This document shows positions 2,150 to 23,307 of a stretch of 24,578 nucleotides of DNA, in pieces. The stretch comes from a virus, in the IMG/VR virus record IMGVR_UViG_3300035698_012329, positions 1 through 24,578 of that record; one strand, given 5' to 3'. Position 1 is the first letter of the stretch. Each line of letters begins with the position of its first letter. The position numbers were made by a program, and so were the translations under genes. The notes under the pieces are model-generated. The model made no database searches. It was given only the letters and a program-made list of their open reading frames with translations, and had not been told where the DNA came from.

Positions 2150-2169
2150 AACGTGGTACACCATGTCAA
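2128..2169 (-). promoter_or_regulatory. Near-consensus sigma-70 promoter P2
   Basis: On the minus strand: perfect -35 TTGACA (2164-2169), a 17-nt spacer and -10 TATACT (2141-2146), followed by the 22-bp block shared with P1. The -35 box overlaps the ATG (2163) of the plus-strand resolvase gene, so polymerase bound here would cover that start. This is the best promoter in the window. Confidence 0.85.
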
Positions 2170-2528
2170 CTACAATCAGCATTGAAATCGAAGGTCCGAT
2201 CCCGTCGAAGAAAAACCAGTGGGGGAAGCGGCGCGGCGGCGTCGGCTTGCCAGCTCAGGCGCGGGCCGAAGTGGACGCGATCACGTGGCGGATCATCGCG
2301 GCTTGGGGCAAGCGTCCTATGGTTCGGAACGAACGGATCACCTTTCGTTTCTGGTCACCACGCAAGGATCGCGATAACCTGTACACAACGGTTCTCGATT
2401 GCATGGCGGCGGCAAACATGATAGAAGACGACCGGGCCGAAGCGATGAACGGCGAGCACGTCCTGACGCCGCTCATTCGAGATCGACGCGAGCGAGTAGT
2501 GATCGAAGTTGAACGATGCCACTTGTGA
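2163..2528 (+). CDS. RusA-family Holliday junction resolvase / endonuclease
   Basis: RusA enzymes are small dimeric, metal-dependent nucleases that cut four-way DNA junctions, here probably clearing branched phage DNA before packaging. The 121-residue protein has the family order: a beta strand then P-S-K-K-N (14-18), a central D-x-D-N (D69, D71, N72) and N-M-I-E-D-D (D89, D90), matching the metal-binding aspartates. The basic residue four places after the second Asp in E. coli RusA (Lys76) is Thr75 here. The length matches the family. The ATG overlaps the -35 box of the opposing promoter P2, and the 3' end overlaps the next gene by 13 nt. It sits among head and neck genes rather than in a replication module. 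Confidence 0.85.
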   Translation: MSTTISIEIEGPIPSKKNQWGKRRGGVGLPAQARAEVDAITWRIIAAWGKRPMVRNERITFRFWSPRKDRDNLYTTVLDCMAAANMIEDDRAEAMNGEHVLTPLIRDRRERVVIEVERCHL

Positions 2529-4354: not shown

Positions 4355-5593
4355 GTGGCAGGAAATCGCGTTTCAAACGTTAACCAGCTCGCGTACATGG
4401 AGATCCAGGGCGCGACGGGTGTAATCAACAACACTTCCGGGACGGCAGACGTAGCGGCGACTGATGCGGTTCGCATCGCTTCGCTTCGTCTCGGCAATCA
4501 GCGGGACCGGATCGAGACTCGAAACAAGACGGGAACCCGTTCGCGGAATGCCGGAACGGCGGGCCGTCGGCGTGCGCCGTGGTCGCTCGATCTCGATCTG
4601 AATCCGAGCGGCGTTCTCGGCACCGCGCCGGACTGTTTCGCGTTGCTGCAATCGGCTTTCGGTCAGGCGTTCTCGGCGGGCTCGGGAACGGCTACCATTA
4701 CGGGCGCTGCTGACAATGGCTCGGGAGCGATCCGGCTCACGGCAACCTCTCACGGGCTCACCACTGGCGATCACGTGTGGGTTTCGGCAGTTACCGGAAC
4801 CGTCGAAGCCAACGGCTTTTGGCGGGTGGTGGTCTCCGACGCGAACAACTTCGATTTGTACGGGTCGGTCTTTGCCGTCACCTACGTTTCGGGCGGCACC
4901 GCGAAGAAATCCACGATCGCGTGGGAGTTGTCCGATGCTTGCGTCCCCATGACTCTGTGGGATTTCGTCGGCGTCGCTTCCGCCGAACAGCAAGCGGGCG
5001 TCAATCTGATTCCCTCTGTTGTTCGCTTCGTCATGGGCGAAGATCAACTTCGGCTGGAAGCCGAGGGCGTGGGCGGTTGGTCGCTGTCGAACAACGGATT
5101 CGCGGCGGCTTCGACCACTGAGAAAGCGGGCCTGACTTCGTTTCCGAGCGAGCCATCGAGCCCGGTCACGAACGGTGGGATCATTCAAGGCACGATCGGC
5201 GCTTTGGTGATCGACGGAATCAACATGTCCACCGTTAGCCGGGTCGTCGTCACGTTCAATACGGGCGTGGTGGTGGACGAAAACGATTGGAACTCCAATC
5301 TTCCGGCCGATTTCGAGGCCGATAATCGGACCGTCAGCATCGAGATCACGCTGAAAGAAACCACCGGAACCGCGATCAACAATGTGAAAGCGAAATCTCT
5401 CGCCGGGACTCCCGTCGATGTTTGGATCAGGAGCGGCAACACCGAAGGCAACGCCTTCGGGTGGTTCCTAGAGAACGTCGAATTCACGCCGCATGAGCGT
5501 TCCGACGGCGAGCGCTCTATGAACGTCGATCTCTCGGGTCAGGCAACCGCCGACGCGGGCTCGATCAATGAGCTAGCCATGTTTGCAGGCTAG
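4355..5593 (+). CDS. Major tail (tube) protein with inserted beta module
   Basis: Tube subunit that polymerises around the tape measure. The 412-residue protein is beta-rich, low in Lys and Cys, and is placed directly before the chaperone pair and tape measure, the standard position. Residues about 114-186 hold an extra module (S-H-G-L-T-T-G-D, then E-A-N-G-F-W, then F-D-L-Y-G-S) also found in the hub and the 1329-residue tip protein; databases often label such phage modules E1 FCCH-like, from memory. The GTG start is fixed by AGGAGGG 7 nt upstream (4341-4347). The insertion likely decorates the tube surface. A strong hairpin follows the stop. Confidence 0.75.
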   Translation: MAGNRVSNVNQLAYMEIQGATGVINNTSGTADVAATDAVRIASLRLGNQRDRIETRNKTGTRSRNAGTAGRRRAPWSLDLDLNPSGVLGTAPDCFALLQSAFGQAFSAGSGTATITGAADNGSGAIRLTATSHGLTTGDHVWVSAVTGTVEANGFWRVVVSDANNFDLYGSVFAVTYVSGGTAKKSTIAWELSDACVPMTLWDFVGVASAEQQAGVNLIPSVVRFVMGEDQLRLEAEGVGGWSLSNNGFAAASTTEKAGLTSFPSEPSSPVTNGGIIQGTIGALVIDGINMSTVSRVVVTFNTGVVVDENDWNSNLPADFEADNRTVSIEITLKETTGTAINNVKAKSLAGTPVDVWIRSGNTEGNAFGWFLENVEFTPHERSDGERSMNVDLSGQATADAGSINELAMFAG

Positions 5594-5653: not shown

Positions 5654-6232
5654 ATGGCTTACAGAATCAAAAGAACGGCAGACAAATTTCAGACGACGGA
5701 AGCGCCCGGCTTGATCGTCACGCTCCGGCGTTGGTCGGATCGCGAACGAATGGCGATGCAAGATGAGATCGCCGACCTCAATCAAAGCTCTGTTGCGATT
5801 TTGGACGAATTGCAACCCCTACAGGATCGATGGAACGAATCAGACAAGTTCGCTCGGGACTGGTACAAAGAACACGGCGAAAACGTAGAGCCGGACTGGG
5901 AACAGTTCGCCGGAAAGCGACTCGCCGGGAGCGAGCGGGTTCACTTCCTGAACCTCTCAAACAAGATCACCATCGTTAACGCGGAAATTCGCGATCAGTG
6001 GATGACGAAGGGGATCGTTTCGATCGAGGGATTCGAGATCGAGGAAGGTCAAGAAACCCGTCAGGGCACGATCGATGAGTTCGTCGAATTCGCCGATGAT
6101 CCCGTGATCGCCGCCGTCTACAACCGGGTCCGGGTCTTGGCCGGTCTGTTCGGGGATGAGGAAAAAAACTCAGAGTCGCCTACCATTTCAGTCGAACCGG
6201 CGGCTGGCGAAACGAAAGGTTCGATTGCGTGA
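5654..6232 (+). CDS. Tail assembly chaperone, upstream frame (gpG-like)
   Basis: In siphophages a pair of chaperones, the short form and a frameshifted long form, coats the tape measure during tail assembly. This 192-residue, mainly helical, acidic protein lies between the major tail gene and the tape measure. I chose ATG 5654 over the in-frame GTG 5645 because GAAGGTG ends 6 nt before the ATG. The slippery heptamer A-AAA-AAC in this reading frame (6163-6169) is 20 codons before the stop. The last 20 residues (Ser/Glu/Ala-rich) are replaced when the frame shifts. Its stop overlaps the next frame's GTG. Confidence 0.75.
   Translation: MAYRIKRTADKFQTTEAPGLIVTLRRWSDRERMAMQDEIADLNQSSVAILDELQPLQDRWNESDKFARDWYKEHGENVEPDWEQFAGKRLAGSERVHFLNLSNKITIVNAEIRDQWMTKGIVSIEGFEIEEGQETRQGTIDEFVEFADDPVIAAVYNRVRVLAGLFGDEEKNSESPTISVEPAAGETKGSIA
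6163..6169 (+). other. Programmed -1 frameshift site A AAA AAC
   Basis: Codons read GAA AAA AAC in the zero frame, so the heptamer is A AAA AAC, a highly efficient bacterial -1 slip sequence. After slipping, translation continues from CTC at 6169 with no stop until 6597. A purine-rich, Shine-Dalgarno-like GGGGATGAGG lies just upstream, similar in idea to the E. coli dnaX stimulator. A weak TCGCC/GGCGA pairing downstream is possible. Confidence 0.85.
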
Positions 6233-6597
6233 AGTGTCGGCACTTCGGACACTACCACGGGCGGAACTGCCGCAAGTACCCAGAATTAGAGGCCCGCTGG
6301 AATGCGGATCTAAAACCGTGGTGGAGTCCGAGGTACGAAACTGCCGAGCAGAAACCTGTCGAGATCGAAGAGTTGGCGACGGCGGAATGTCCCGTCTCGC
6401 TCATCACTCAAGACTCGATAGACTTGCTGGAAAGGTTTTTCAGGATGCAGGCGGTCAAAGATGCCGTCGGCGTCGTTTCCGGGCCGGATGCAGATCCCGG
6501 AAAATGGCCTGCAAGGCTGGTCGATGCGTTGGTAGTGATTCAAGGCGAGCGAGACGCGGCTGAAGAAATTCGGCACCGGGTCAGCCGCAAGGGGTAG
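6229..6597 (+). CDS. Tail assembly chaperone, frameshifted C-terminal part (gpGT-like)
   Basis: As a stand-alone ORF this is 122 residues from a GTG overlapping the previous stop. However the same frame is open back to the slippery site at 6163-6169, so the main product is probably a -1 fusion: 172 residues from the upstream frame plus 142 from this one (314 in total). Only the fusion contains the first Cys of a C-V-K-C motif (TGC 6226-6228) that precedes C-R-K-Y-P, so it alone has the complete Cys/His cluster typical of small metal-binding phage domains. The rest is helical and acidic. It ends 3 nt before the tape measure GTG, as expected for the long chaperone. Confidence 0.75.
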   Translation: MKCRHFGHYHGRNCRKYPELEARWNADLKPWWSPRYETAEQKPVEIEELATAECPVSLITQDSIDLLERFFRMQAVKDAVGVVSGPDADPGKWPARLVDALVVIQGERDAAEEIRHRVSRKG

Positions 6598-6600
6598 AGC

Positions 6601-9600
6601 GTGGGTGTAACTGAACGCTTCGACGTAGAATTCGACGTAACCGGCGATGGCAATCGAGAGATCAACACCGCCAAGCGTAACGCCGATGACTTGGAGCGCG
6701 CAGTACGCGGCGCGTCGGGCGCTGTGGGCGGGCTCACTAACAGCCTGTCTACAGTCGCTCCGACGAAACTCGATGCAGTCCGTAGAGAGGCTGTCAGCAC
6801 CGCAAGTCAGCTCGAAGATGTCCGGCAACAGATCGAGCGGATCGGCCGGAGTAGCCTCAGGGCTAACCAGATGTTCGGTGTTGGGGCCGGACTTCTCGGG
6901 AAAGAGAAAAACCTCGAAGCCGGACTGATCGCGAGAGAGCGGGACATCGTTCGCGAGCTGGCGAACCTCAAGCGCATCGAAGAGCAAGCCCGCAAGATCG
7001 AAGCGGCGCGTACCAGTCTACGGCGCAATCAACTCACAAGCACCGGAACCGAGAGGGCCGCTTCGGCGGGCCTTGGTCTTCCTAAACTGAATGCGGGCAA
7101 GATCCTTTCCGGGGGGCTCGGTTTCTTGGCGGGCGGCGGCGTCGGCGCTCTTCTCGGCGGTAGCCTTGCCGCCTTGGGGGCGGCTGAGGGCGCTCGCGAC
7201 TTGGTTCGATTTGCCGATGCGGCTCTACAGGCTTCGGCTCGCATCGAACAGCTCAGGGACAATCAGGGCGTTCTACGCGAGCAGTTCGGCGTAACGGCTC
7301 GGGAAATCGCGGTTACCGAGTCGGCGCTTTCGAGCTTGGGCCTGACCGAACGCCAGCGGCTCACCTCGATTCAGGACTTGACGCGGGCGCAAGCTCGACA
7401 AGCCGAAGTCGCCGGGCTTGTTCAGATCGCGCTCGATGGCGCGGCTCGCGAAGGCCTTTCGACGGAACGGGCGATCGAATCGCTCACGATCGGCATTAAG
7501 CGCGGCTCTTCGCTGATCCTCGATAACATCGGCGTCGTCGTCGATGGCACCGAAGCGAATCGGAAGTATGCGGAGAGCCTAGGTCTCGCGAGCGCTGAAA
7601 GCCTGACCGCTGAACAGCGTAGCCGCGCCCTGATCGAAGCTCTGCTGAGGCAGAGTGGGGCTAGCGGAGAGGCGGCGGCGGGCGTCGGCTCGATCGCCGA
7701 TACGCTTACGCAACTCGATCAGGCTCAATTGAAGGTGAGCGCTACGGCGGGCAAGCTGTTTCAGCCCGTCGCCAAAGCTGGTGCGACCGCTTATCTAGAC
7801 GTTCTGAACGGTATCAACTCGGCGCTCGATCGGCTGTTGCCTCGATTGCCCTTCGGGCCGGGCGGCGAAGATCCGATCCAGATCGACAACTTGGCGAGAG
7901 GCCAGCAACGGCTAACCCAAGCCGGTTTTGATCCGAGAGGGCTCGCCGACAAAGCGCTACAGCCCTTCGTCGAACAGATCGGCAAGCTCACGCAAGCCGA
8001 GTTCAACCGCCGCAAGTCCGCCGATGATCTGTTGCCGATCGAGGGGAACGGTCCGCAACTGGTGAACGGTCGGATCGAGGATCTGACTCAGGCCGATATC
8101 TTCAATCGGAATGTAGAGGCGATCGAGTCGGCTCAGAAACGCATCGAAGGCGCATCGACCAACGCCAATCAGGCGGCGGCGGCGATCGAGAAAGTCGCCG
8201 CCTCGATCCGAAGCCAAGCCGAGACGCTTCGGGTAGCTCAGGAAGCGGAATCGAGGACCGGATTCGATCGGCTCAATTTCGAGCGGGCCAAGGCGGTTCA
8301 GGAAGTCGATAAACAGATCGCCGACCTTCAACGGAAGTTCTCGGCGGATGCCCTGATCGGTGATCTCCGTAAGCAGTTCGGCGACATCATCACGCCGGAT
8401 CAGATCGCGAAGATTCGCGAGACGTTTGATCCGGCGACTGTTGCGCCGTTCCTGTCTCAACTCAGGGCGGCGCGGGCGGACATCAGCGCGGCGTTCGATC
8501 TGAAAGACATCGCCGAGACGGAACGCCTGATCGGAGAGATCGCCAAGGCTCAAGAGCGAGCCGCCGGGCAAGCCGAGAACTTCCGGCGCTCGCTGTTTGC
8601 CGCGAACCAAGATCTAAAAGAGCGATCGATCGAGCCGGTGCAGATCGACGAATCGGCGCTAAGGCGTCAGGCTCAGGATCAGCGCCGAATCGCTCAATCC
8701 GTGGGTCAGCAACTCGGCGGGTTCGATTTCACGAATACGACGCAAAGCGCTCAGGCGATCGAGGCTGTGAACGCCGCCGCTTTGCGGGCGCTCGAACAGC
8801 AAACAGCCGCTCGCGAACGCTTGGCTGAGCTTTCCGCCGGGCCGGGCGGCGAGTTGGACGCGGCGCGGGCCATCGCCGACATTCGGGTTCAGTCGGCTCT
8901 CGACGAATTGGCTCTTCGCCAGCGGCTCTCGACGACTGAGAATGAACGGCTCTCGAATCTACTCGATGCAGCAAGCCAGATCCGGCAAGTTCAGATCGAC
9001 GCCGAGCTGGCGGTATCGGAGGAACGGAACCGGCAGCTAGAGAGCTTCCGCGAAGCTTTCGGGCGAACGATTGACGCCGTACAGCAACGCGGCCTCTCAG
9101 GCGTTCAGGAAGTGCTACAGACCTTTCTCGGCACTGTGCAACGGCAGATCCTAACGAATCTCGCGACTGAGGGCTTCAAGGCGATCCAGGGCGGCGGGTT
9201 TGAGGGTTTGCAGCTTCCGGGGCAGACCGACGATGAAGGCAACCTGAATCTGTTCGGGCGGCTGCTACAGGGGACGCCTTTTGCTCAAGATCCCGAGCAA
9301 CGCGCGATCCGGCTCCAGGTCGATGCTCTCGGCTCAAACGAACAAGCCTTGCGCGATGTCGAGCGGGCTTTGCGTCAGGTCGTCGGGTCGGTGGACGCTG
9401 GCAGCGGCGGCGGCTTCCTCGGCGGCGAACTTCCGGGACTGCTGAATCAGATCGGCGGCTTCGCGGGCGGAACGGCGGCTGAGATCATCCGCGATGCGTC
9501 TCAGCTAAACAACAGCGTCGGACAGATCCGGGAAGGGGCTCAGCCTCAGGTGGCTACCATCGAAGGCGCGATCGTGAACGCTCCTCTACTCGAAGCCGCG

Positions 9601-10341
9601 ATCGAGCGGAGCGTTCAGGCGTCGAAGGATATCAAGTTCAGCGTCGATAAGGGGCTCGGCGATCTCACGAAAGACAACCGGCAAGCAATCGAAAGCTCTG
9701 CGGCGAACGCTCGACCAAGCCCGGCGTCCGGGGCCGCTGTGGACGCGGCGCGATCGACTGCCGATGCGGCCGATAAGGCGGCGGCGGCGTCGAAAGAGGG
9801 CAGTGAGAAACTCTCAACCCTGAGTCGGAACCTCTCGACCGGGTTCGCCCTTGCCGCTTCGGGCTTCGGGATTCGCGAAGGGATCAAACAGGGCGGCGTC
9901 CGCGGCGCGATCACGGTGGGCGGCTCGGCGGCTTCGGCGATCGGGACCACGCTCGGCGCGTTTAACGTCTTGCCCGGCGTCGGTCAAGCTCTCCAGATCG
10001 GCGGGGCCGTGGCTACGTTCGTCTCATCGCTGTTCGGCGGCGGCGGCAACCGGGGCGAAAAGTTCCGGGAGCAAGTCGAGGCGTCGCTCGAAGCGAACAG
10101 CTTCACCGCTCCGGCGGCGCTCAATCGCACCTTCGACACTTCCGGCGCGGAAATCGATTTCGACGCACGCGGAAACCCGCGCCCGATCATCATCAATGAT
10201 AATCGGCAAGCGAACATCAACGCTCTCGATGCTAGGAGCATCCTTGACCGGGGCCGGGACATCGCCGATGCTTTGTTGCCGTCGCTGCAAACCGATCATC
10301 CGATCATTCCTGAGTTGCGGGCTCAACTCTTGGGCGCATAA
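6601..10341 (+). CDS. Tape measure protein
   Basis: Sets tail length and passes into the tube lumen. The 1246 residues are largely helical and coiled-coil, rich in Ala, Gln, Arg and Glu (for example about 700-830). A Gly/Ala/Leu hydrophobic segment lies near residues 164-197 and a second at about 1080-1147, typical membrane-active parts that may help DNA cross the cell envelope. The last 60 residues are polar. By the rule of about 0.15 nm per residue, the tail would be near 190 nm. The GTG start has AGGGG 6 nt upstream. The stop TAA shares its last A with the ATG of the next gene. No lysozyme or peptidase motif was seen. Confidence 0.9.
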   Translation: MGVTERFDVEFDVTGDGNREINTAKRNADDLERAVRGASGAVGGLTNSLSTVAPTKLDAVRREAVSTASQLEDVRQQIERIGRSSLRANQMFGVGAGLLGKEKNLEAGLIARERDIVRELANLKRIEEQARKIEAARTSLRRNQLTSTGTERAASAGLGLPKLNAGKILSGGLGFLAGGGVGALLGGSLAALGAAEGARDLVRFADAALQASARIEQLRDNQGVLREQFGVTAREIAVTESALSSLGLTERQRLTSIQDLTRAQARQAEVAGLVQIALDGAAREGLSTERAIESLTIGIKRGSSLILDNIGVVVDGTEANRKYAESLGLASAESLTAEQRSRALIEALLRQSGASGEAAAGVGSIADTLTQLDQAQLKVSATAGKLFQPVAKAGATAYLDVLNGINSALDRLLPRLPFGPGGEDPIQIDNLARGQQRLTQAGFDPRGLADKALQPFVEQIGKLTQAEFNRRKSADDLLPIEGNGPQLVNGRIEDLTQADIFNRNVEAIESAQKRIEGASTNANQAAAAIEKVAASIRSQAETLRVAQEAESRTGFDRLNFERAKAVQEVDKQIADLQRKFSADALIGDLRKQFGDIITPDQIAKIRETFDPATVAPFLSQLRAARADISAAFDLKDIAETERLIGEIAKAQERAAGQAENFRRSLFAANQDLKERSIEPVQIDESALRRQAQDQRRIAQSVGQQLGGFDFTNTTQSAQAIEAVNAAALRALEQQTAARERLAELSAGPGGELDAARAIADIRVQSALDELALRQRLSTTENERLSNLLDAASQIRQVQIDAELAVSEERNRQLESFREAFGRTIDAVQQRGLSGVQEVLQTFLGTVQRQILTNLATEGFKAIQGGGFEGLQLPGQTDDEGNLNLFGRLLQGTPFAQDPEQRAIRLQVDALGSNEQALRDVERALRQVVGSVDAGSGGGFLGGELPGLLNQIGGFAGGTAAEIIRDASQLNNSVGQIREGAQPQVATIEGAIVNAPLLEAAIERSVQASKDIKFSVDKGLGDLTKDNRQAIESSAANARPSPASGAAVDAARSTADAADKAAAASKEGSEKLSTLSRNLSTGFALAASGFGIREGIKQGGVRGAITVGGSAASAIGTTLGAFNVLPGVGQALQIGGAVATFVSSLFGGGGNRGEKFREQVEASLEANSFTAPAALNRTFDTSGAEIDFDARGNPRPIIINDNRQANINALDARSILDRGRDIADALLPSLQTDHPIIPELRAQLLGA

Positions 10342-16300: not shown

Positions 16301-17441
16301 GCAAGCAATCCCGATCGCCAACTTCGCTATCGACTCGAACACCTCGGACACGCTCACGCTGACCGGGGGTAGCCCTGACCCAACGGCTATTGGAGTCGAA
16401 GCGCTCGACGTGCTTGTGATGCGAGCCCGTGCTACCACGGTCACGGCGAACACGATCGGATGCGCCAAATTCGACAACTCGCTAGCCGTCGAAGCCGTGA
16501 AATCTGTCGAGCTGGCGACGAATGCTAGCCCGATCGTGGTGACCTCCACCGGGCACGGCTACGTGACAAGCAATCAGGTTCGGATCGACTTCGCGGGCGG
16601 GAATACGAATGCGAACGGAATCCACGCGATCACGCGGCTTGACGATGATACGTTTTCGCTGGACAGCTCCACCGGGAACGCCGCCTATACGGGCGGCGGG
16701 ATCGTTCGCAGACTTACCGAGGGCCTGACGCCTGACTCTGAGATCGGGACCGTCGTCAGGGTCTTGCACGGCACCGGCAAGGGGCAGACTCGGACCGTGA
16801 TCGACAACAGCGAAACGGTCTACACCCTCGATCGCGATTGGGACGTAGAGCCCGATGACGAATCGATATGGATCGTCGAAGTTCCGCAATGGGATCAGGT
16901 GATCGAAACGTCTCCGATCGACAACAGCGTTCCGCCGACGGCGGGGCTTGTCGAGACGATCGCGGTTCCCTTTGACAACTTGCTCAATCAAGCTGTGCTG
17001 GTGATGCCGTTCACTGCCGACGGCGGTGATAACGAGAGCTGGGAGCACTTGAACGATGCTCTAGATATCTTCATGTTCGGATCGGCCGGAGCGACCGGCG
17101 GATTCCAGGGCGGGCGGGCCTTCGTGATCCAGGGGACACTCGCGATCGGCTCGGATCAAACGCCGATCAACCGGACACGCGCCGCCGCTACCGTGGTCGC
17201 CGTGCAAGCCGAAGTCAAGATAGCGCCCACCGGCGCAAGCATTACGATCGAGATCTACGTCGATGCTTCGGTATGGCTCACGCTCTCGATCACGGCTACG
17301 ACCTTGTTTGCGGAGGCGACGCAAGGGGAGTTGGCCGCCGCCGGGCCGATCCCGGCAGACGCAAAGCTGAGGGTCGATCTGACTTCGGTCGGTACGACTG
17401 AGCCGGGCGCGGATCTCTCCGTTCAGCTATTCTTTTCATAG
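13377..17441 (+). CDS. Tail tip hub protein, gpL-like plus gpJ-like fusion
   Basis: A 1354-residue protein that likely forms the tip hub contacting the receptor and closing the tube. The N-terminal about 240 residues carry four Cys (C176, C201, C223, C230) in R-C-P-W, Y-P-C-G-Y, T-E-C-N-F and P-N-C-I-E, followed by Y-G-G-I-Q-F. The order and the 7-residue spacing of the last two recall the iron-sulfur domain of lambda gpL. The centre (about 250-760) resembles gpJ-type hubs. A fibronectin-III-like segment (about 800-900), the shared HG-TGD-type module (about 1043-1112) and a beta-rich C terminus follow. I chose ATG 13377, with GGAG 9 nt upstream, over GTG 13353. Confidence 0.75.
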   Translation: MAVAAINTEKEKKPVSAAPLLLFEWLYADGTYFRASTHPVDEASGGNKVNISGAPFDGKAFLPRIKSQNIDTTQAQGSLGIDIVPAVSCILANGDGFVFSNFEGNPARGFKGAQLQVWLVFWEVGTTNFSSDWRSVFLGLSDPPSRVEEDEFQVGATANTNLGKINLPPTRIQIRCPWAFPRNAEQRQAAKDDTESIFYPCGYSADLSGGVGNLDGGDAFTECNFTKPNCIERGMFTEDGSANPTGRYGGIQFEPLPTRRTRPVGGDFETLEQQRNIAAYNDFVPLVYGMQWIDAIPLNILRDGNLTGFEVLLCQGEVDKVQRVVCNGVEMFRKDTLNADPNISGWWEWVNTGDRNGAQNTDALYKDTSGNKLGDPYGSLAVIFVKVPRQLHDSAEPPSIQVLLQGKKVRVYTDTSTFTTVWSENPFWQKLDLLVQTNFTYAAINRQTFIDAAAIADEVIDFTDPDTGATTTYRYQSGFTLRRRRSASDIIRGLRNATDSLLYFDENGLLAIRIKRSLADQQGSAVSGSNYNTAIESKTSDGSTADGYAAYKFDESNILVDQNGRRRFRLIAQPTNATPTHITVLLQNRFRQYKQDSVQVRDSSAIVKAGREVTASVPIDGIILTDQAKRIASRIIAEGVGGNTRNDDGGTWEFELWSSVNAIHLQIGDIVLLQWPELALDHGLESPSATPILGVLARLTAFAPATNAAEIRIRVATIRDQVWWLDTFGQKDEVANEDSHRDAEPRPSYPWQAFQVQPSSGDPILATTNYFFGLAQRYVTLADSTAKAFLDVSGKLPVNIFSAETYPPNVPVQGSTANTGGSIAGGFTYYIRLVTKEATGNSSKLTGPSNPIIVEVPAGTDTNTISAIDCSWPDGAVGYMVFAGSNPNRLTFQSQTDGTPPATVTITALNEAHWGLPDSELDVIKVKVKRIVHSGVFGVQISAVTATTIEVIGALWTTDEWAGYVCSVIGFQGDSQAIPIANFAIDSNTSDTLTLTGGSPDPTAIGVEALDVLVMRARATTVTANTIGCAKFDNSLAVEAVKSVELATNASPIVVTSTGHGYVTSNQVRIDFAGGNTNANGIHAITRLDDDTFSLDSSTGNAAYTGGGIVRRLTEGLTPDSEIGTVVRVLHGTGKGQTRTVIDNSETVYTLDRDWDVEPDDESIWIVEVPQWDQVIETSPIDNSVPPTAGLVETIAVPFDNLLNQAVLVMPFTADGGDNESWEHLNDALDIFMFGSAGATGGFQGGRAFVIQGTLAIGSDQTPINRTRAAATVVAVQAEVKIAPTGASITIEIYVDASVWLTLSITATTLFAEATQGELAAAGPIPADAKLRVDLTSVGTTEPGADLSVQLFFS

Positions 17442-17942: not shown

Positions 17943-17964
17943 CTTGGCGAATGGGGGTTATCCT

Positions 17965-18477
17965 ATGCAGGTGCAAAGACCAATTCTGTTTCTAGACATC
18001 GACGGCGTTGTTATCACGCTCCGAAGCATTCAAGCTGGCAAGGGAAATCCGAGCGCTTCGATCAAGAAAGTAGATCATGACGCCGTGGTTCAACTGAATC
18101 GAGTCATCGAGACAACCGGCGCGGCGGTGGTGCTTAGCAGCACGTGGCGCGAACTCTACGACGGCGACCTTGGGCGGCTCGCCGAGTTGCTGGCAAGCTG
18201 GGAAATCCGTTGTGATCTGATCGGCAAGACGCCGCGCCTGACCGGACCGGCGCGTACAGATAGCGGATTCGAGTATGAGGCGGCTCGACCTAGGGGCGAA
18301 GAGATCGCGTCTTGGCTCGCCAACAATCCCGGGCATGGTCCCGTAGCGATCATCGATGAAGAATCGGATATGGGGGCAATTCTCCGAAAGCGGTTGGTCA
18401 AGACTGAATTCGAGACGGGCCTGACCGCGCCGCTCGCCGACCGCGCGATATGGCTTTTGCAGGGGAACGATGCCTGA
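17965..18477 (+). CDS. HAD-fold hydrolase-like protein (SAK-HAD type)
   Basis: A 170-residue haloacid dehalogenase-fold protein. Motif I is F-L-D-I-D-G (D11, D13), motif II is L-S-S-T-W-R (58-62) and the acidic motif is I-I-D-E-E-S-D (D131, D135). L-S-S-T-W-R and the final G-L-T match the family described as the HAD domain of Swiss Army Knife RNA-repair proteins, from memory. Such enzymes remove phosphates, perhaps from nucleic acid ends. The second acidic residue of the usual DD pair is Glu132. ATG 17965 is chosen (GGGGG 7 nt upstream) over an in-frame TTG at 17944. It overlaps the next gene by 8 nt. Confidence 0.75.
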   Translation: MQVQRPILFLDIDGVVITLRSIQAGKGNPSASIKKVDHDAVVQLNRVIETTGAAVVLSSTWRELYDGDLGRLAELLASWEIRCDLIGKTPRLTGPARTDSGFEYEAARPRGEEIASWLANNPGHGPVAIIDEESDMGAILRKRLVKTEFETGLTAPLADRAIWLLQGNDA

Positions 18478-21400
18478 GAGCTTCAAATTCCTCTCGCCTC
18501 ATCGGACCGTCTTTCAGCAAGGCTTCGACCGGCGCGGCGCTCAGTCGGCAATCTATGAGGCCAGCTCATCGGGCTTCAAGATCGCGGGCCGATGCTCGGC
18601 TCATGGCGATTTTGCGGTAGTGGTCCTAGGGGACATCGACAATCGACTCGAACCGCTCCCGATCCGTCACCTTCCTCTGACGGGGCCGATGACGGGGGTT
18701 CAACTCCAGTACGACTACCTAAGCAGCGGGGTTCAGCCGCTCGACTCGCGAAAGTTCGCGTCGATCCCCTGGCGTCACCTCGAATTCGCTCTGACGGACG
18801 GACAGACCACCTCGAAAAGTCTCGATCTGTTCGATCGAGCCACGCTACAGAGCGGCACATTCACGGCGGCTTCTGGTACGTTCACCTTCACTGAGACGGG
18901 GATCATGAAGAACGGCGATCGAGTCGGTCTGTGGTACGGGAACCGGCTCATCGAGTACGCGGTCCCGGGTGGCGTCGATGTCGATCTGAACTATTCAAAC
19001 AGCGGCGGAACCGGAGTCAATCACACCCTGACGACTCCGGCTGGAACGTACACCTATACGCAACTCGGCGGCGATAGTTCTAGCGCCGTGGCTACTGGCG
19101 TGGCTGCTGCTGCTGCTGCTGATCCGTGGATTGTGCCGACAGCGAACGCGAACGTCGTTTCGTGCCGTTCCAAGAAAAGCGACAAGAGCACGTTCAACGT
19201 TTCGGGAGTCGATGGCGGGTTCTTCGGCTCGCAAGGTCCGGCAACGCTTCACAGCATCACGCCGACCACCTTCGCGAGCGAGTTCGCGGCTCTCATCAAT
19301 GCAACCGACTGGAATGCAGTCGCCATCGATTACGGGCTTTATGCCACATCGAGCGGCGCGGTCCTGACGATCAAGGCGGGCCGTCATGGGCTCTGCGATG
19401 TCGCCGTGGATGGCGTGACAGTCACCTACAGTTCCGGCGTTCACCGCTTTAATGGCATGGCCGGAAGCTCCACGATCTACATCGACGGTTCGGCTTACAC
19501 GGTTTCAAGCGTCGATTCGCCCTCTCAGGTAACGCTCGCCGCTGGCGGGACCGGCGGGGCGCTGGCGGCTAAGCCATTCTCGGCTGAGGTGGGCGGAATC
19601 GATGGGAACAAGATCCAGATCTATCGAGAGGCGACGCGGGCGATCTCCGGCAGCGTGGACACCTCAGGGACAACGGTCACGTGGCAGACCGGAACGCAAT
19701 TCTCGAATCTGGTTGCGGACCGCTACATCACGATCGACGGGGCCGGCTACATCATCGATTCGGTCGATTCGGCGACTCAGATCACGCTCGCCAGCTCGGC
19801 GGGAACCCTGAGCGGGAAAGCATTCTCGGCTGTCGAGGAAGAGAACGCCGCGATCACCACGTCAGCCGAGACGCTGAAACTCTCCGGCGGCGCGTCCGAT
19901 GTCACTTGGCGCGTCACGATCGATTTTGACGAAGTGATTACGCTCCCGAGTTCCGGCTCTGGTCGTCTGAGGGATATGCGGCGGGCGTGGTGGACCTTCG
20001 CGCCTCAAGTCGCCGACGGGACCGATTACGTCGCCTCGGATTGGGATGTCACCTTCTCGAACTGGACGATCACCGACGCCTCAAGCAATGCGGATCTGAC
20101 CTATCCGGGCGCGGGTTCGGTTGTCGTCGGCAACCGGGACAAGTGGGTTCGCTACGCCGGAACCTGGGCAGAGCAGGAAGGGTTTTTTTATCACGGCTGG
20201 GCGCGGGCTTCGCAGACCACCGGCGATAAGGTCACGATCCGCTACGCCTCGAATCAGAGTCATGATCTTTGGCTCGGCTGGTCGAAGTACGCCGATCGCG
20301 GCAAGATCGATGTTTCGGTCGATGGGGACAGCGCTACGACGCATGACGCCTACCTGAGCGCCGAGCCATCGGTAGAGACGCAGGAACCGCTACGGACTTC
20401 GCTTGCGGCCGGACCGCATATTGTAGAGATCACGATCCGATCGGACAAGAATTCGTCAAGCAGCGGCAAGTGGTTCTATTTTGATTTCCTCCACGTCGTA
20501 GTTCCTTCGACCACCATTGCGGACGATCCGAACCCGGTTCACACCGATCGAGGGTTTGCTACCGATTTCGACACTGACCACACGTTGCAAATGACGCCGC
20601 AACGGCTTGTCTGGAATCTCGAAAAAACCGGCTACCGAGGGACGATCAACCATTTTTGCGGCGTGTTCTTCTATCCGCAACGCAACCGGAAGGCTTCGAC
20701 CGGATCACAGCCGAGCGTGGCGATCACCTTTGCGGGCACCTTCCGGGACGGCGAGAGCGTCATTCTGAACATCTCGGGAACGTCGGTAGGTAAGACGATC
20801 AGCAAAGCTGAGAGCCGGGCCGATGTCATCCGGCATTTCGTGTACTTCATCAATGAGACGTTTGTAGGCGTGTTCGCATCGTCAAGCGGCGACGTTCTCA
20901 CGATCAAGAATCGAGAGTATCTGTTCGATTTCACCTTCGCGGTTTCAACGAACGATTCCGTCGATGGCACCTTGACGCCTGTCGGCGATCTCCAGCAAGG
21001 AACCGAGGGGATCTGGGAAGTAGACGATTCCGTAGCGTTCAATTACGGATTTACGAAGTGGCATGAGGACTTTGCCGACGCGGTGGCCTCATCGTCTGAT
21101 TTGACGGATGTCGTTTTTACCTACGGTTTTGAGGAGTTGAATCCGCCTGAGGATGGCTCGAATAAGTGGGCGGCGCGGTTCTATGACGGCTTGCGGGTCT
21201 TGACCGCTACCGGGTTCGGCACCGAAGCTGAGGGCCGGATAACGGACGCCACGAACGCGAGCCCGATCGTGGCGACTTGCCCGGGTCATGGGTACGACAC
21301 GGGCGATTCGATCGGGGTTCTGAACGTGGTCGGAAACACGGCGGCCAATGGCACTTGGGACATTGCCGTTCTGGACGCGGATACGTTTGAGCTGGTCGGA

Positions 21401-22459
21401 TCGACCGGGAACGGCGCGTTCAGCTATACGCAGTCTGTAGACCTGATTCCGATCTGTCGGCGGAACCTCAAGACGGTTCACCTCGCCTTTAATACACCGG
21501 TCACGAACTACTTCAAAAAGGTCTATCTCGAAACGGCGCGGATCATGAACGATGCGAGCCTGACGCCGTGGGCGCAATTCGGCGAGAATACGTGGTGGTT
21601 TTTCTCGCGCGATAGCTGCATCATCACCGGCGCAACGGCGGCGAACCCTGTCGAGATCACTACCGCCGAGCCTCACGGCTGGACTACGGGCGATGAGGGA
21701 TACGTCGCCGGGCTTCGCAACTTCCCGAGCGCGAACGGGCTCCAAGATATCACCGTGACGGGCTCGACCACCTTCACGCTCGACGGCGTGGACGGATCAG
21801 CCGAGGGGCCTTTCGACGGCTCGAATAGCCCTCGCGTGGTCGGCGGCTCGATGGCGTTCTACGATGACGACACGAAAACGGATGCGGCAACGGATCTAGG
21901 TCGCGCCTTGGTCAAGATCGACACGCAAGACACAGATCCCAGCGCTCACACTGACGACTTCGATTTTTTGAAGGCCCGCATCTTCGGCCACATCGACGCC
22001 ATCATCGATCACGTCCTGGCGACCTACGCGGGCGCGAAGTTTGAGCACCTTCTACCGCTCGACACGAACGCATCCGATGTTTATTGGCGGGATGCTCTGC
22101 CGTTCCCTCAGGGCGGCCGGACGAACCATGAGGCGAACATCCCTGACGAATTCAAAGCGAAAGCCGGGAGCGGGCTCGACCGGCTCGTGATCGAGGCTCT
22201 GAGCTTCGTCGCTCAGTACCGAGACTCAGACGAAGCTGTTCTGGCGATGCGTCACATGGTCGATAACGAATCGTGGGCGTTCGCCGATATGGACTTTCTC
22301 GCTTGCATCTTCACGTCGTCGCCGCCGTGGGAGGCGGTTTATCTCGAATGGGAACGGCTCGGGATGCGTCAGTACCGGATGTTTGCGTTCGATCACTACG
22401 TTCTGTACTCACGGGCTTTCCGGCTACCCAGCTACCGGAACCGGGTCGATTTCATCTGA
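18470..22459 (+). CDS. Large tail tip / fibre structural protein
   Basis: A 1329-residue beta-rich protein, last of the tail genes and presumably exposed on the virion. The N-terminal 110 residues may attach it to the tip. It then has repeated small beta domains: a pair at about 336 and 420 (Y-I-D-G-S-A-Y / T-I-D-G-A-G-Y, each leading to S-V-D-S and Q-x-T-L), a second pair around 260-320 and 760-830 (S-G-x-V-L-T-I-K), and two HG-TGD modules (about 923-990 and 1050-1120). The last 130 residues are helical and aromatic. No enzyme motif was seen. A non-contractile tail sheath protein is an alternative name. It overlaps the HAD gene by 8 nt (ATGCCTGA). Confidence 0.65.
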   Translation: MPESFKFLSPHRTVFQQGFDRRGAQSAIYEASSSGFKIAGRCSAHGDFAVVVLGDIDNRLEPLPIRHLPLTGPMTGVQLQYDYLSSGVQPLDSRKFASIPWRHLEFALTDGQTTSKSLDLFDRATLQSGTFTAASGTFTFTETGIMKNGDRVGLWYGNRLIEYAVPGGVDVDLNYSNSGGTGVNHTLTTPAGTYTYTQLGGDSSSAVATGVAAAAAADPWIVPTANANVVSCRSKKSDKSTFNVSGVDGGFFGSQGPATLHSITPTTFASEFAALINATDWNAVAIDYGLYATSSGAVLTIKAGRHGLCDVAVDGVTVTYSSGVHRFNGMAGSSTIYIDGSAYTVSSVDSPSQVTLAAGGTGGALAAKPFSAEVGGIDGNKIQIYREATRAISGSVDTSGTTVTWQTGTQFSNLVADRYITIDGAGYIIDSVDSATQITLASSAGTLSGKAFSAVEEENAAITTSAETLKLSGGASDVTWRVTIDFDEVITLPSSGSGRLRDMRRAWWTFAPQVADGTDYVASDWDVTFSNWTITDASSNADLTYPGAGSVVVGNRDKWVRYAGTWAEQEGFFYHGWARASQTTGDKVTIRYASNQSHDLWLGWSKYADRGKIDVSVDGDSATTHDAYLSAEPSVETQEPLRTSLAAGPHIVEITIRSDKNSSSSGKWFYFDFLHVVVPSTTIADDPNPVHTDRGFATDFDTDHTLQMTPQRLVWNLEKTGYRGTINHFCGVFFYPQRNRKASTGSQPSVAITFAGTFRDGESVILNISGTSVGKTISKAESRADVIRHFVYFINETFVGVFASSSGDVLTIKNREYLFDFTFAVSTNDSVDGTLTPVGDLQQGTEGIWEVDDSVAFNYGFTKWHEDFADAVASSSDLTDVVFTYGFEELNPPEDGSNKWAARFYDGLRVLTATGFGTEAEGRITDATNASPIVATCPGHGYDTGDSIGVLNVVGNTAANGTWDIAVLDADTFELVGSTGNGAFSYTQSVDLIPICRRNLKTVHLAFNTPVTNYFKKVYLETARIMNDASLTPWAQFGENTWWFFSRDSCIITGATAANPVEITTAEPHGWTTGDEGYVAGLRNFPSANGLQDITVTGSTTFTLDGVDGSAEGPFDGSNSPRVVGGSMAFYDDDTKTDAATDLGRALVKIDTQDTDPSAHTDDFDFLKARIFGHIDAIIDHVLATYAGAKFEHLLPLDTNASDVYWRDALPFPQGGRTNHEANIPDEFKAKAGSGLDRLVIEALSFVAQYRDSDEAVLAMRHMVDNESWAFADMDFLACIFTSSPPWEAVYLEWERLGMRQYRMFAFDHYVLYSRAFRLPSYRNRVDFI

Positions 22460-22941: not shown

Positions 22942-23307
22942 CTATCCGTTGGGGTGCTTGTGGCAGTAGCCGGAATCGCCCGCCGGGTTCTGGCAAGGCT
23001 TGTCATGCTTGGTCGTCGCCTTGCACTTGGGGCCGTGTAGCACGCGAGCGCCGCGCGGTCTGCCTGCGGGCCATCCCGTCTTGCGATTCTTCACCTTGGC
23101 GAGATCTTTCGGGTCGATGAGCCACAAGCTCACGCGCCGACCGTTGCGATTCTCCATGTCCATTTCGGTATTCATGAGCCCCGTCGCCGCGTCCATCGCG
23201 GGTAGCCGTTGCTGCTGAATGAACCGCTGAACCCGACTGCGGTTCAGTCCGAGCTTTTCGGCGGCTTCTTTCGCCGTGATTTTGTTGTGTCCGTCTGTTG
23301 CTGGCAT
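22942..23307 (-). CDS. Putative DNA-binding protein: HTH, AT-hook-like and zinc-finger-like parts
   Basis: A 121-residue protein with three parts. Residues 9-40 (I-T-A-K-E-A-A-E-K-L-G-L-N-R-S-R-V-Q-R-F-I) are a helix-turn-helix as in excisionase or MerR-type proteins, closed by W-L-I-D-P-K-D-L near 62-69. Residues 78-86 (G-W-P-A-G-R-P-R-G) contain an AT-hook core, G-R-P. Residues 95-118 carry C95, C105, C115 and H118 in C-K-A-T-T-K-x3-P-C-Q-N-P-A-G, then G-Y-C-H-K-H, a small zinc-knuckle layout. It likely regulates phage genes, perhaps its own operon. Its start overlaps the 84-residue gene by 64 nt. Confidence 0.7.
   Translation of the reverse strand: MPATDGHNKITAKEAAEKLGLNRSRVQRFIQQQRLPAMDAATGLMNTEMDMENRNGRRVSLWLIDPKDLAKVKNRKTGWPAGRPRGARVLHGPKCKATTKHDKPCQNPAGDSGYCHKHPNG

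What the first reader, a model, noticed from the sequence alone, without database searches (positions are those of the whole stretch)
6150..6232. Perfect in-frame A AAA AAC slippery site joins the tail chaperones
The heptamer 6163-6169 is in the zero frame and the -1 frame is open from 6169 to 6597, so a 314-residue fusion is expected. The downstream ORF starting at GTG 6229 is then an artefact or minor product. The fusion adds the first Cys (codon 6226-6228) that completes a C-x2-C cluster, an independent sign that the upstream extension is translated. A purine-rich SD-like sequence sits directly upstream.
Basis: partly seen in the sequence, partly recalled or inferred. Interest (0 to 1): 0.75.

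Follow-up and report, generated by a model that had tools for sequence, protein, structure and literature searches.

The report
Frameshifted tail chaperone with cysteine cluster
A phage tail-assembly gene pair is joined by a programmed one-base ribosomal slip, as in phage lambda, and relatives show that the joined protein carries a conserved four-cysteine, probably zinc-binding, module just past the slip.

Summary
A AAA AAC lies at 6163-6169 in the zero frame of G (ATG 5654 to 6232). The -1 frame is open from 6160 to the TAG at 6595-6597, 3 nt before the tape-measure gene. The fusion is 314 aa.

The heptamer alone is not rare in the window, but comparison settles the matter. Five distinct relatives of the -1 product (35-46% identity, encoded downstream of a related major tail protein) all keep A AAA AAC at this junction and all four cysteines (C-x2-C-x10-C...CP). 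None has an ATG, GTG or TTG in the -1 frame before the cluster, so GTG 6229 is private to the window. Upstream of it the -1 frame shows purifying selection: 67/156 changed codons are synonymous, against 22/170 in the zero frame. Ten of ten cysteine-type T domains found independently through the tape-measure protein have a slippery heptamer 45-69 nt before the CxxC. Two isolated phages (Alteromonas P24, Agrobacterium JP1) share the layout, with T unannotated or truncated.

The mechanism is the known lambda gpG/gpGT frameshift, so this is a new member of a known kind. The four-Cys T module is the fresher part; zinc binding is inferred. The SD-like stimulator is weak and not conserved in near relatives.

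The parts
5654..6232 (+). Gene G: tail assembly chaperone, 192 aa (zero frame, stop at 6230-6232). Predicted ordered to about residue 167; the tail after the slip site is disordered.
   Evidence: AF2 mean pLDDT 81, residues 168-192 below 50. No Pfam/PHROG/PDB-fold match, so G is identified by position and by relatives in the same position. GTG 5645 is an alternative start.
6163..6169 (+). A AAA AAC slippery heptamer in the zero frame
   Evidence: conserved in L156-L163
6160..6597 (+). T reading frame (-1), translated only as a C-terminal extension of G; stop TAG 6595-6597
   Evidence: profile match of the sister T family to this frame, E = 5.8e-5 among 355 window frames (next best 5.8)
6226..6390 (+). 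Four conserved cysteine codons of T: 6226-6228, 6235-6237, 6268-6270, 6388-6390 (C-x2-C-x10-C-x39-C-P), candidate zinc site
   Evidence: Alignments (C22, C25, C36, C76 and P77 invariant in the six close sequences; C22, C25, C76 and P77 also invariant in the 18-sequence set)
6229..6231 (+). GTG, the mechanical start of the separate downstream ORF; probably not a real start
   Evidence: Absent from all relatives; weak SD, -3.4 kcal/mol; would remove the invariant first Cys
6170..6228 (+). Dual-coding stretch: zero-frame tail of G (NSESPTISVEP...) over the -1 frame (LRVAYHFSRTGGWRNERFDC)
   Evidence: T frame 67/156 changed codons synonymous, zero frame 22/170; T-frame codon positions 1, 2, 3 differ at 25, 20 and 46%
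4355..5593 (+). Probable major tail (tube) protein gene upstream
   Evidence: Position and size; homologue upstream of G in L156-L159 and L161 (E down to 6e-68); carries an E1_FCCH-like module
6601..10341 (+). Tape measure protein gene downstream
   Evidence: 1246 aa; residues 188-357 match the tape measure protein of OP947162, whose domain matches T5-type tape measure proteins

Best explanation
This is the G/GT tail-assembly-chaperone locus of a long-tailed phage. Most ribosomes read gene G to its stop at 6230-6232 and make a 192-aa chaperone with a disordered tail. At A AAA AAC (6163-6169) a minority slip back one base (AAA AAC re-pairs as AAA AAA) and continue in the -1 frame to 6597, making a 314-aa GT fusion. 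T is made only as this extension; the ORF starting at GTG 6229 is not a separate gene. By analogy with lambda, G and GT coat the tape measure protein and T recruits the tail tube protein, with the slip rate setting the G:GT ratio. In this clade T begins with a predicted helix right after the junction, followed by a four-Cys module that most likely binds zinc and stabilises T, then two helices. Shown here: heptamer, frames, conservation, selection on the -1 frame, missing alternative starts, gene order. Inferred: that the shift is ribosomal, its rate, the partners, and zinc.
For: Heptamer in register and -1 frame open to 3 nt before the tape measure gene. Five distinct relatives with the same heptamer, four Cys and no start codon before CxxC. 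-1-frame purifying selection upstream of GTG 6229. Same gene order with a homologous major tail protein. Ten of ten Cys-type T domains from an independent tape-measure search carry a slippery heptamer 45-69 nt before CxxC. Isolated phages OP947162, P24 and JP1 share the layout. The sister family adds a GGAG-type SD (41 of 44) and a 9-bp hairpin 7 nt after the heptamer, paired in 99.7% of cells. G-T frameshifting in long-tailed phages is established (PMC5009743).
Against: No expression data. A_AAA_AAC is less shift-prone than A_AAA_AAG in E. coli (PMC5009743), although low efficiency is what lambda needs. No significant or conserved stimulator was found in the window clade: SD -5.7 kcal/mol and not conserved, downstream structure z = -0.2. 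G has no recognisable sequence or PDB-fold relative. The AF2 model of the Cys region is low confidence, so zinc geometry is untested.
Confidence: 0.93

Rival explanations
1. T is a separate gene started at GTG 6229 by re-initiation or translational coupling with the G stop at 6230-6232; the heptamer is incidental.
For: GTG 6229 overlaps the G stop in the classic GTGA arrangement, and a weak GAAAGG lies upstream (-3.4 kcal/mol).
Against: No relative has any ATG, GTG or TTG before the CxxC. The first Cys lies before the GTG and is invariant. Codons 4-22 of the -1 frame, all upstream of GTG 6229, evolve under protein constraint. In relatives the G stop lies at varied places 76-130 nt after the heptamer, so coupling is not conserved.
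Confidence: 0.03
2. The frame change happens by transcriptional slippage on the A run (RNA polymerase adds or drops A), giving a mixed mRNA population and the same fusion protein.
For: The window has seven consecutive A (6162-6168) and OP947162 a longer run.
Against: Close relatives L157, L158 and L161 have only six A before the C, short for efficient polymerase slippage (general knowledge, not tested here). What is conserved is the X XXY YYZ register, not run length. The sister family has an SD and a hairpin placed as ribosomal stimulators.
Confidence: 0.03
3. Assembly or sequencing error in a homopolymer: G and T are really one continuous gene.
For: The site is a homopolymer in a single IMG/VR virus record.
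Against: The same frame break at the same place occurs in five independent relatives, in many more sister loci from many samples, and in isolated phage genomes. The zero-frame tails differ in length.
Confidence: 0.01

Closest known systems
Phage lambda gpG / gpGT tail assembly chaperones (Levin 1993; Xu 2004, 2013, 2014, as reviewed in PMC5009743)
   Same: Two overlapping ORFs between the major tail protein and tape measure genes, joined by a -1 slip on a heptamer near the end of G; T lacks its own conserved start.
   Different: No detectable sequence similarity found to described chaperone families. T carries four conserved Cys, a feature I do not recall in lambda T. The heptamer is A AAA AAC; from memory lambda uses G GGA AAG. 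Efficiency and G:GT ratio are unknown here.
HCTV-2-type haloarchaeal siphovirus g-t site (A_AAA_AAC, PMC5009743)
   Same: Same heptamer in the same gene position.
   Different: Archaeal host; no relationship of the proteins was tested.
Alteromonas phage P24 and Agrobacterium phage JP1 G-T regions (MK241539, PQ741606)
   Same: A AAA AAC at the end of G, -1 frame with KKL..., C-x2-C, further Cys and CP before the helices, directly upstream of the tape measure gene.
   Different: They match the sister T family (31-34% identity to L068 T), not the window directly. In P24 the T region is unannotated and in JP1 only its last part is annotated, without a frameshift.

Membership tests
lambda-type G/GT frameshifted tail assembly chaperones | Two overlapping ORFs directly between the major tail protein gene and the tape measure gene | tested here: met
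   Window order MTP 4355, G 5654, T 6160-6597, TMP 6601. MTP homologues lie at the same place in relatives. TMP identified.
lambda-type G/GT frameshifted tail assembly chaperones | Slippery heptamer X XXY YYZ in the G frame within the overlap, conserved in relatives | tested here: met
lambda-type G/GT frameshifted tail assembly chaperones | T has no conserved start of its own and is selected in the -1 frame from the slip site on | tested here: met
lambda-type G/GT frameshifted tail assembly chaperones | Homology of G or T to a described chaperone family (Pfam/PHROG/PDB) | tested here: not met
   No significant match for G or T; no PDB fold match for G. The kind is defined by arrangement and function despite low sequence similarity (PMC5009743), so this lowers only the claim of sequence-family membership.
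lambda-type G/GT frameshifted tail assembly chaperones | Both G and GT made at an unequal ratio; G binds tape measure, T binds tube protein; neither in the virion | not testable with these tools
   Needs proteomics, reporters and pull-downs
Four-Cys zinc-binding module in T | Four cysteines conserved across divergent relatives | tested here: met
   the same order in P24, JP1 and OP947162
Four-Cys zinc-binding module in T | Zinc bound, cysteines clustered in space | tested here: inconclusive
   AF2 model of T has pLDDT below 50 over most of the cysteine region

The most novel reading that the evidence does not exclude
A widespread, undescribed class of phage tail chaperones in which the frameshift-only T domain opens with a conserved four-cysteine zinc module, so that only the minor GT product, not G, is a metalloprotein. 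Metal availability could then tune tail initiation.
Probability: 0.55. Interest if true: 0.5.

Novelty: new member of a known kind. Interest (0 to 1): 0.36.

Why it matters
It fixes the gene model (one 314-aa product instead of two unrelated ORFs) in a phage whose tail chaperones match no family in the libraries searched, and in isolated phages where T is missing or truncated in the record. It also exposes a recurrent four-Cys module made only by frameshifting, which gives a clean test of what T does: remove the metal site and ask whether tube recruitment fails.

Tried and rejected
Direct searches with G, T, tape measure and hub proteins found no relatives in viral contigs or GenBank phages except one weak tape-measure match; relatives came only through that match and then through T alignments. 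SD stimulator in the window: energy within the random range, not conserved in near relatives. Downstream stimulator in the window: a 10-bp stem 6189-6198/6218-6227 exists but starts 19 nt after the heptamer, z = -0.2, and is not shared by relatives. Covariation for the sister-family hairpin: none, because its columns hardly vary. CCHC zinc-knuckle reading of CVKCRHFGHYHGRNC: rejected because the histidines are not conserved in L161. T5 as a comparison: the large ORF before pb2 reads like a homing-endonuclease-type protein rather than T (judged by eye). Rfam: no match. Literature: no held paper found that describes a cysteine or zinc motif in T; most subscription papers are not held.

Full report
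Observation. In the window the G frame reads ...GGG GAT GAG GAA AAA AAC TCA... at 6152-6172, so the heptamer A AAA AAC at 6163-6169 is exactly in register for a -1 slip. The -1 frame is closed by TGA at 6157-6159, then open to TAG 6595-6597. The tape measure ORF opens at GTG 6601. G from ATG 5654 is 192 aa; the fusion is 172 + 142 = 314 aa. AAAAAAC as a word occurs four times in the window, which is not unusual, so the claim needs comparative support.

Finding relatives. The phage is an orphan: G, T, tape measure and hub found no relatives in viral contigs or in 50,697 phage records, apart from one weak tape-measure match to Rhodobacteraceae phage LS06-2018-MD06. A two-sequence alignment of that tape-measure region retrieved 80 viral and 3 genomic loci. 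Most of these have an overlapping ORF pair with a slippery heptamer upstream of the tape measure gene. A subset has a CxxC-containing -1 extension. One such group (L068 type) was used to fetch 70 loci. An alignment of the window T with L068 T fetched eight loci encoding direct relatives of the window T at 35-46% identity, five of them distinct.

All five distinct relatives carry AAAAAAC at the same point, reading KKLRVAYH in the -1 frame, and all four cysteines C22, C25, C36 and C76 (T numbering) plus P77 are invariant. None has ATG, GTG or TTG in the -1 frame between its upstream stop and the CxxC, so T cannot start there independently and the window's GTG 6229 is a private accident. The search pattern demanded Lys-Lys-Leu, so relatives lacking KK could be missed; Lys codon choice was free, yet all are AAA AAA. 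A less biased check uses loci fetched by tape measure alone: all ten genuine Cys-type T frames (including the window and OP947162) have a slippery heptamer 45-69 nt before the CxxC. The frames listed there without a heptamer (L009, L048, L070 and one in L047) are arginine-rich or empty matches that I judged by eye not to be T.

Selection. In 6172-6228, upstream of GTG 6229, pairwise differences among the six sequences fall at 25, 20 and 46% of T-frame codon positions 1, 2 and 3. Amino-acid identity is 0.69 in the T frame against 0.45-0.46 in the other two. Of changed codons, 67/156 are synonymous in T against 22/170 in the G frame. The -1 frame is therefore translated and selected upstream of the putative GTG start. 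The G tail (KNSESPTTS...) looks conserved because it overprints T, and AF2 finds it disordered.

Homology to the sister family. A profile of L068-type T finds window frame 6160-6594 at E = 5.8e-5 among 355 six-frame ORFs of the window; the next is 5.8. In the 18-sequence alignment K1, K2, L3, A6, H8, C22, C25, C76, P77 and A122 are invariant. Isolated phages Alteromonas P24 and Agrobacterium JP1 match the sister family and show the same junction and cysteines. In the Rhodobacteraceae phage the site is A AAA AAA and the G ORF is labelled ribonucleotide reductase.

Stimulators. In the sister family a GGAG-type SD lies about 10 nt upstream in 41 of 44 loci, and a nine-pair hairpin starts 7 nt after the heptamer with 99.7% of cells paired, though with no covariation because it hardly varies. 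In the window clade neither is convincing: the SD-like stretch is -5.7 kcal/mol against a random 5% quantile of -6.9 and is absent from L156-L158, and downstream folding has z = -0.2 in the window (among its close relatives only L161 reaches -2.5). I therefore do not claim a stimulator for the window.

Mechanism. The best reading is the lambda G/GT system: a low-frequency -1 slip yields GT, G binds tape measure, T recruits tube protein, and neither remains in the virion (known for lambda; PMC5009743; inferred here). The four-Cys module is most simply a structural zinc site in T, unproven: the AF2 model is poor there while the C-terminal helices are fairly confident. Transcriptional slippage is disfavoured because three relatives have only six A.

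Novelty. Frameshifted tail chaperones are long known, so this is a new member of a known kind. The conserved four-Cys T domain was not found described in the held literature and the window T matches no Pfam or PHROG family at a significant level. That is the part with most to offer.

Noticed in passing
window 4739-4906, 16542-16709, 21287-21412: One E1_FCCH-like module recurs in the major tail protein (E 9e-4), the hub-like protein (0.04) and the 18470-22456 protein (4e-4), all below Pfam's cut-off. The hub copy also matches the tail protein region of relative L156, which suggests module sharing between tube and tip.
   Followed up: partly
window 18470-22456: 1329-aa protein with a match to the TIM barrel of non-contractile tail sheath proteins (PF23845, E = 1.1e-10, residues 695-742).
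   Followed up: no
window 17944-18474: HAD domain of Swiss Army Knife RNA repair proteins (PF18143, E = 2e-27) inside the tail gene cluster.
   Followed up: no
window 2163-2525: Weak RusA-like resolvase match (E = 0.009, below cut-off) inside the head-tail gene cluster.
   Followed up: no
window 22942-23307 (minus): HTH_17 protein with a C-terminal Cys/His tail (DUF5763, E = 9e-6, just below cut-off) on the opposite strand.
   Followed up: no
L164 3501-3800; L165 3501-3854; L002 4598-5535: In public records of isolated phages the T region is unannotated (P24), reduced to its last part (JP1) or split into small ORFs, with G called ribonucleotide reductase (OP947162).
   Followed up: yes
L086 2501-2564 and 34 related loci: In the sister T family the hairpin after the heptamer keeps GTT (Val) and TGC (Cys) codons invariant in 35 sequences, hinting at RNA-level constraint.
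   Followed up: partly
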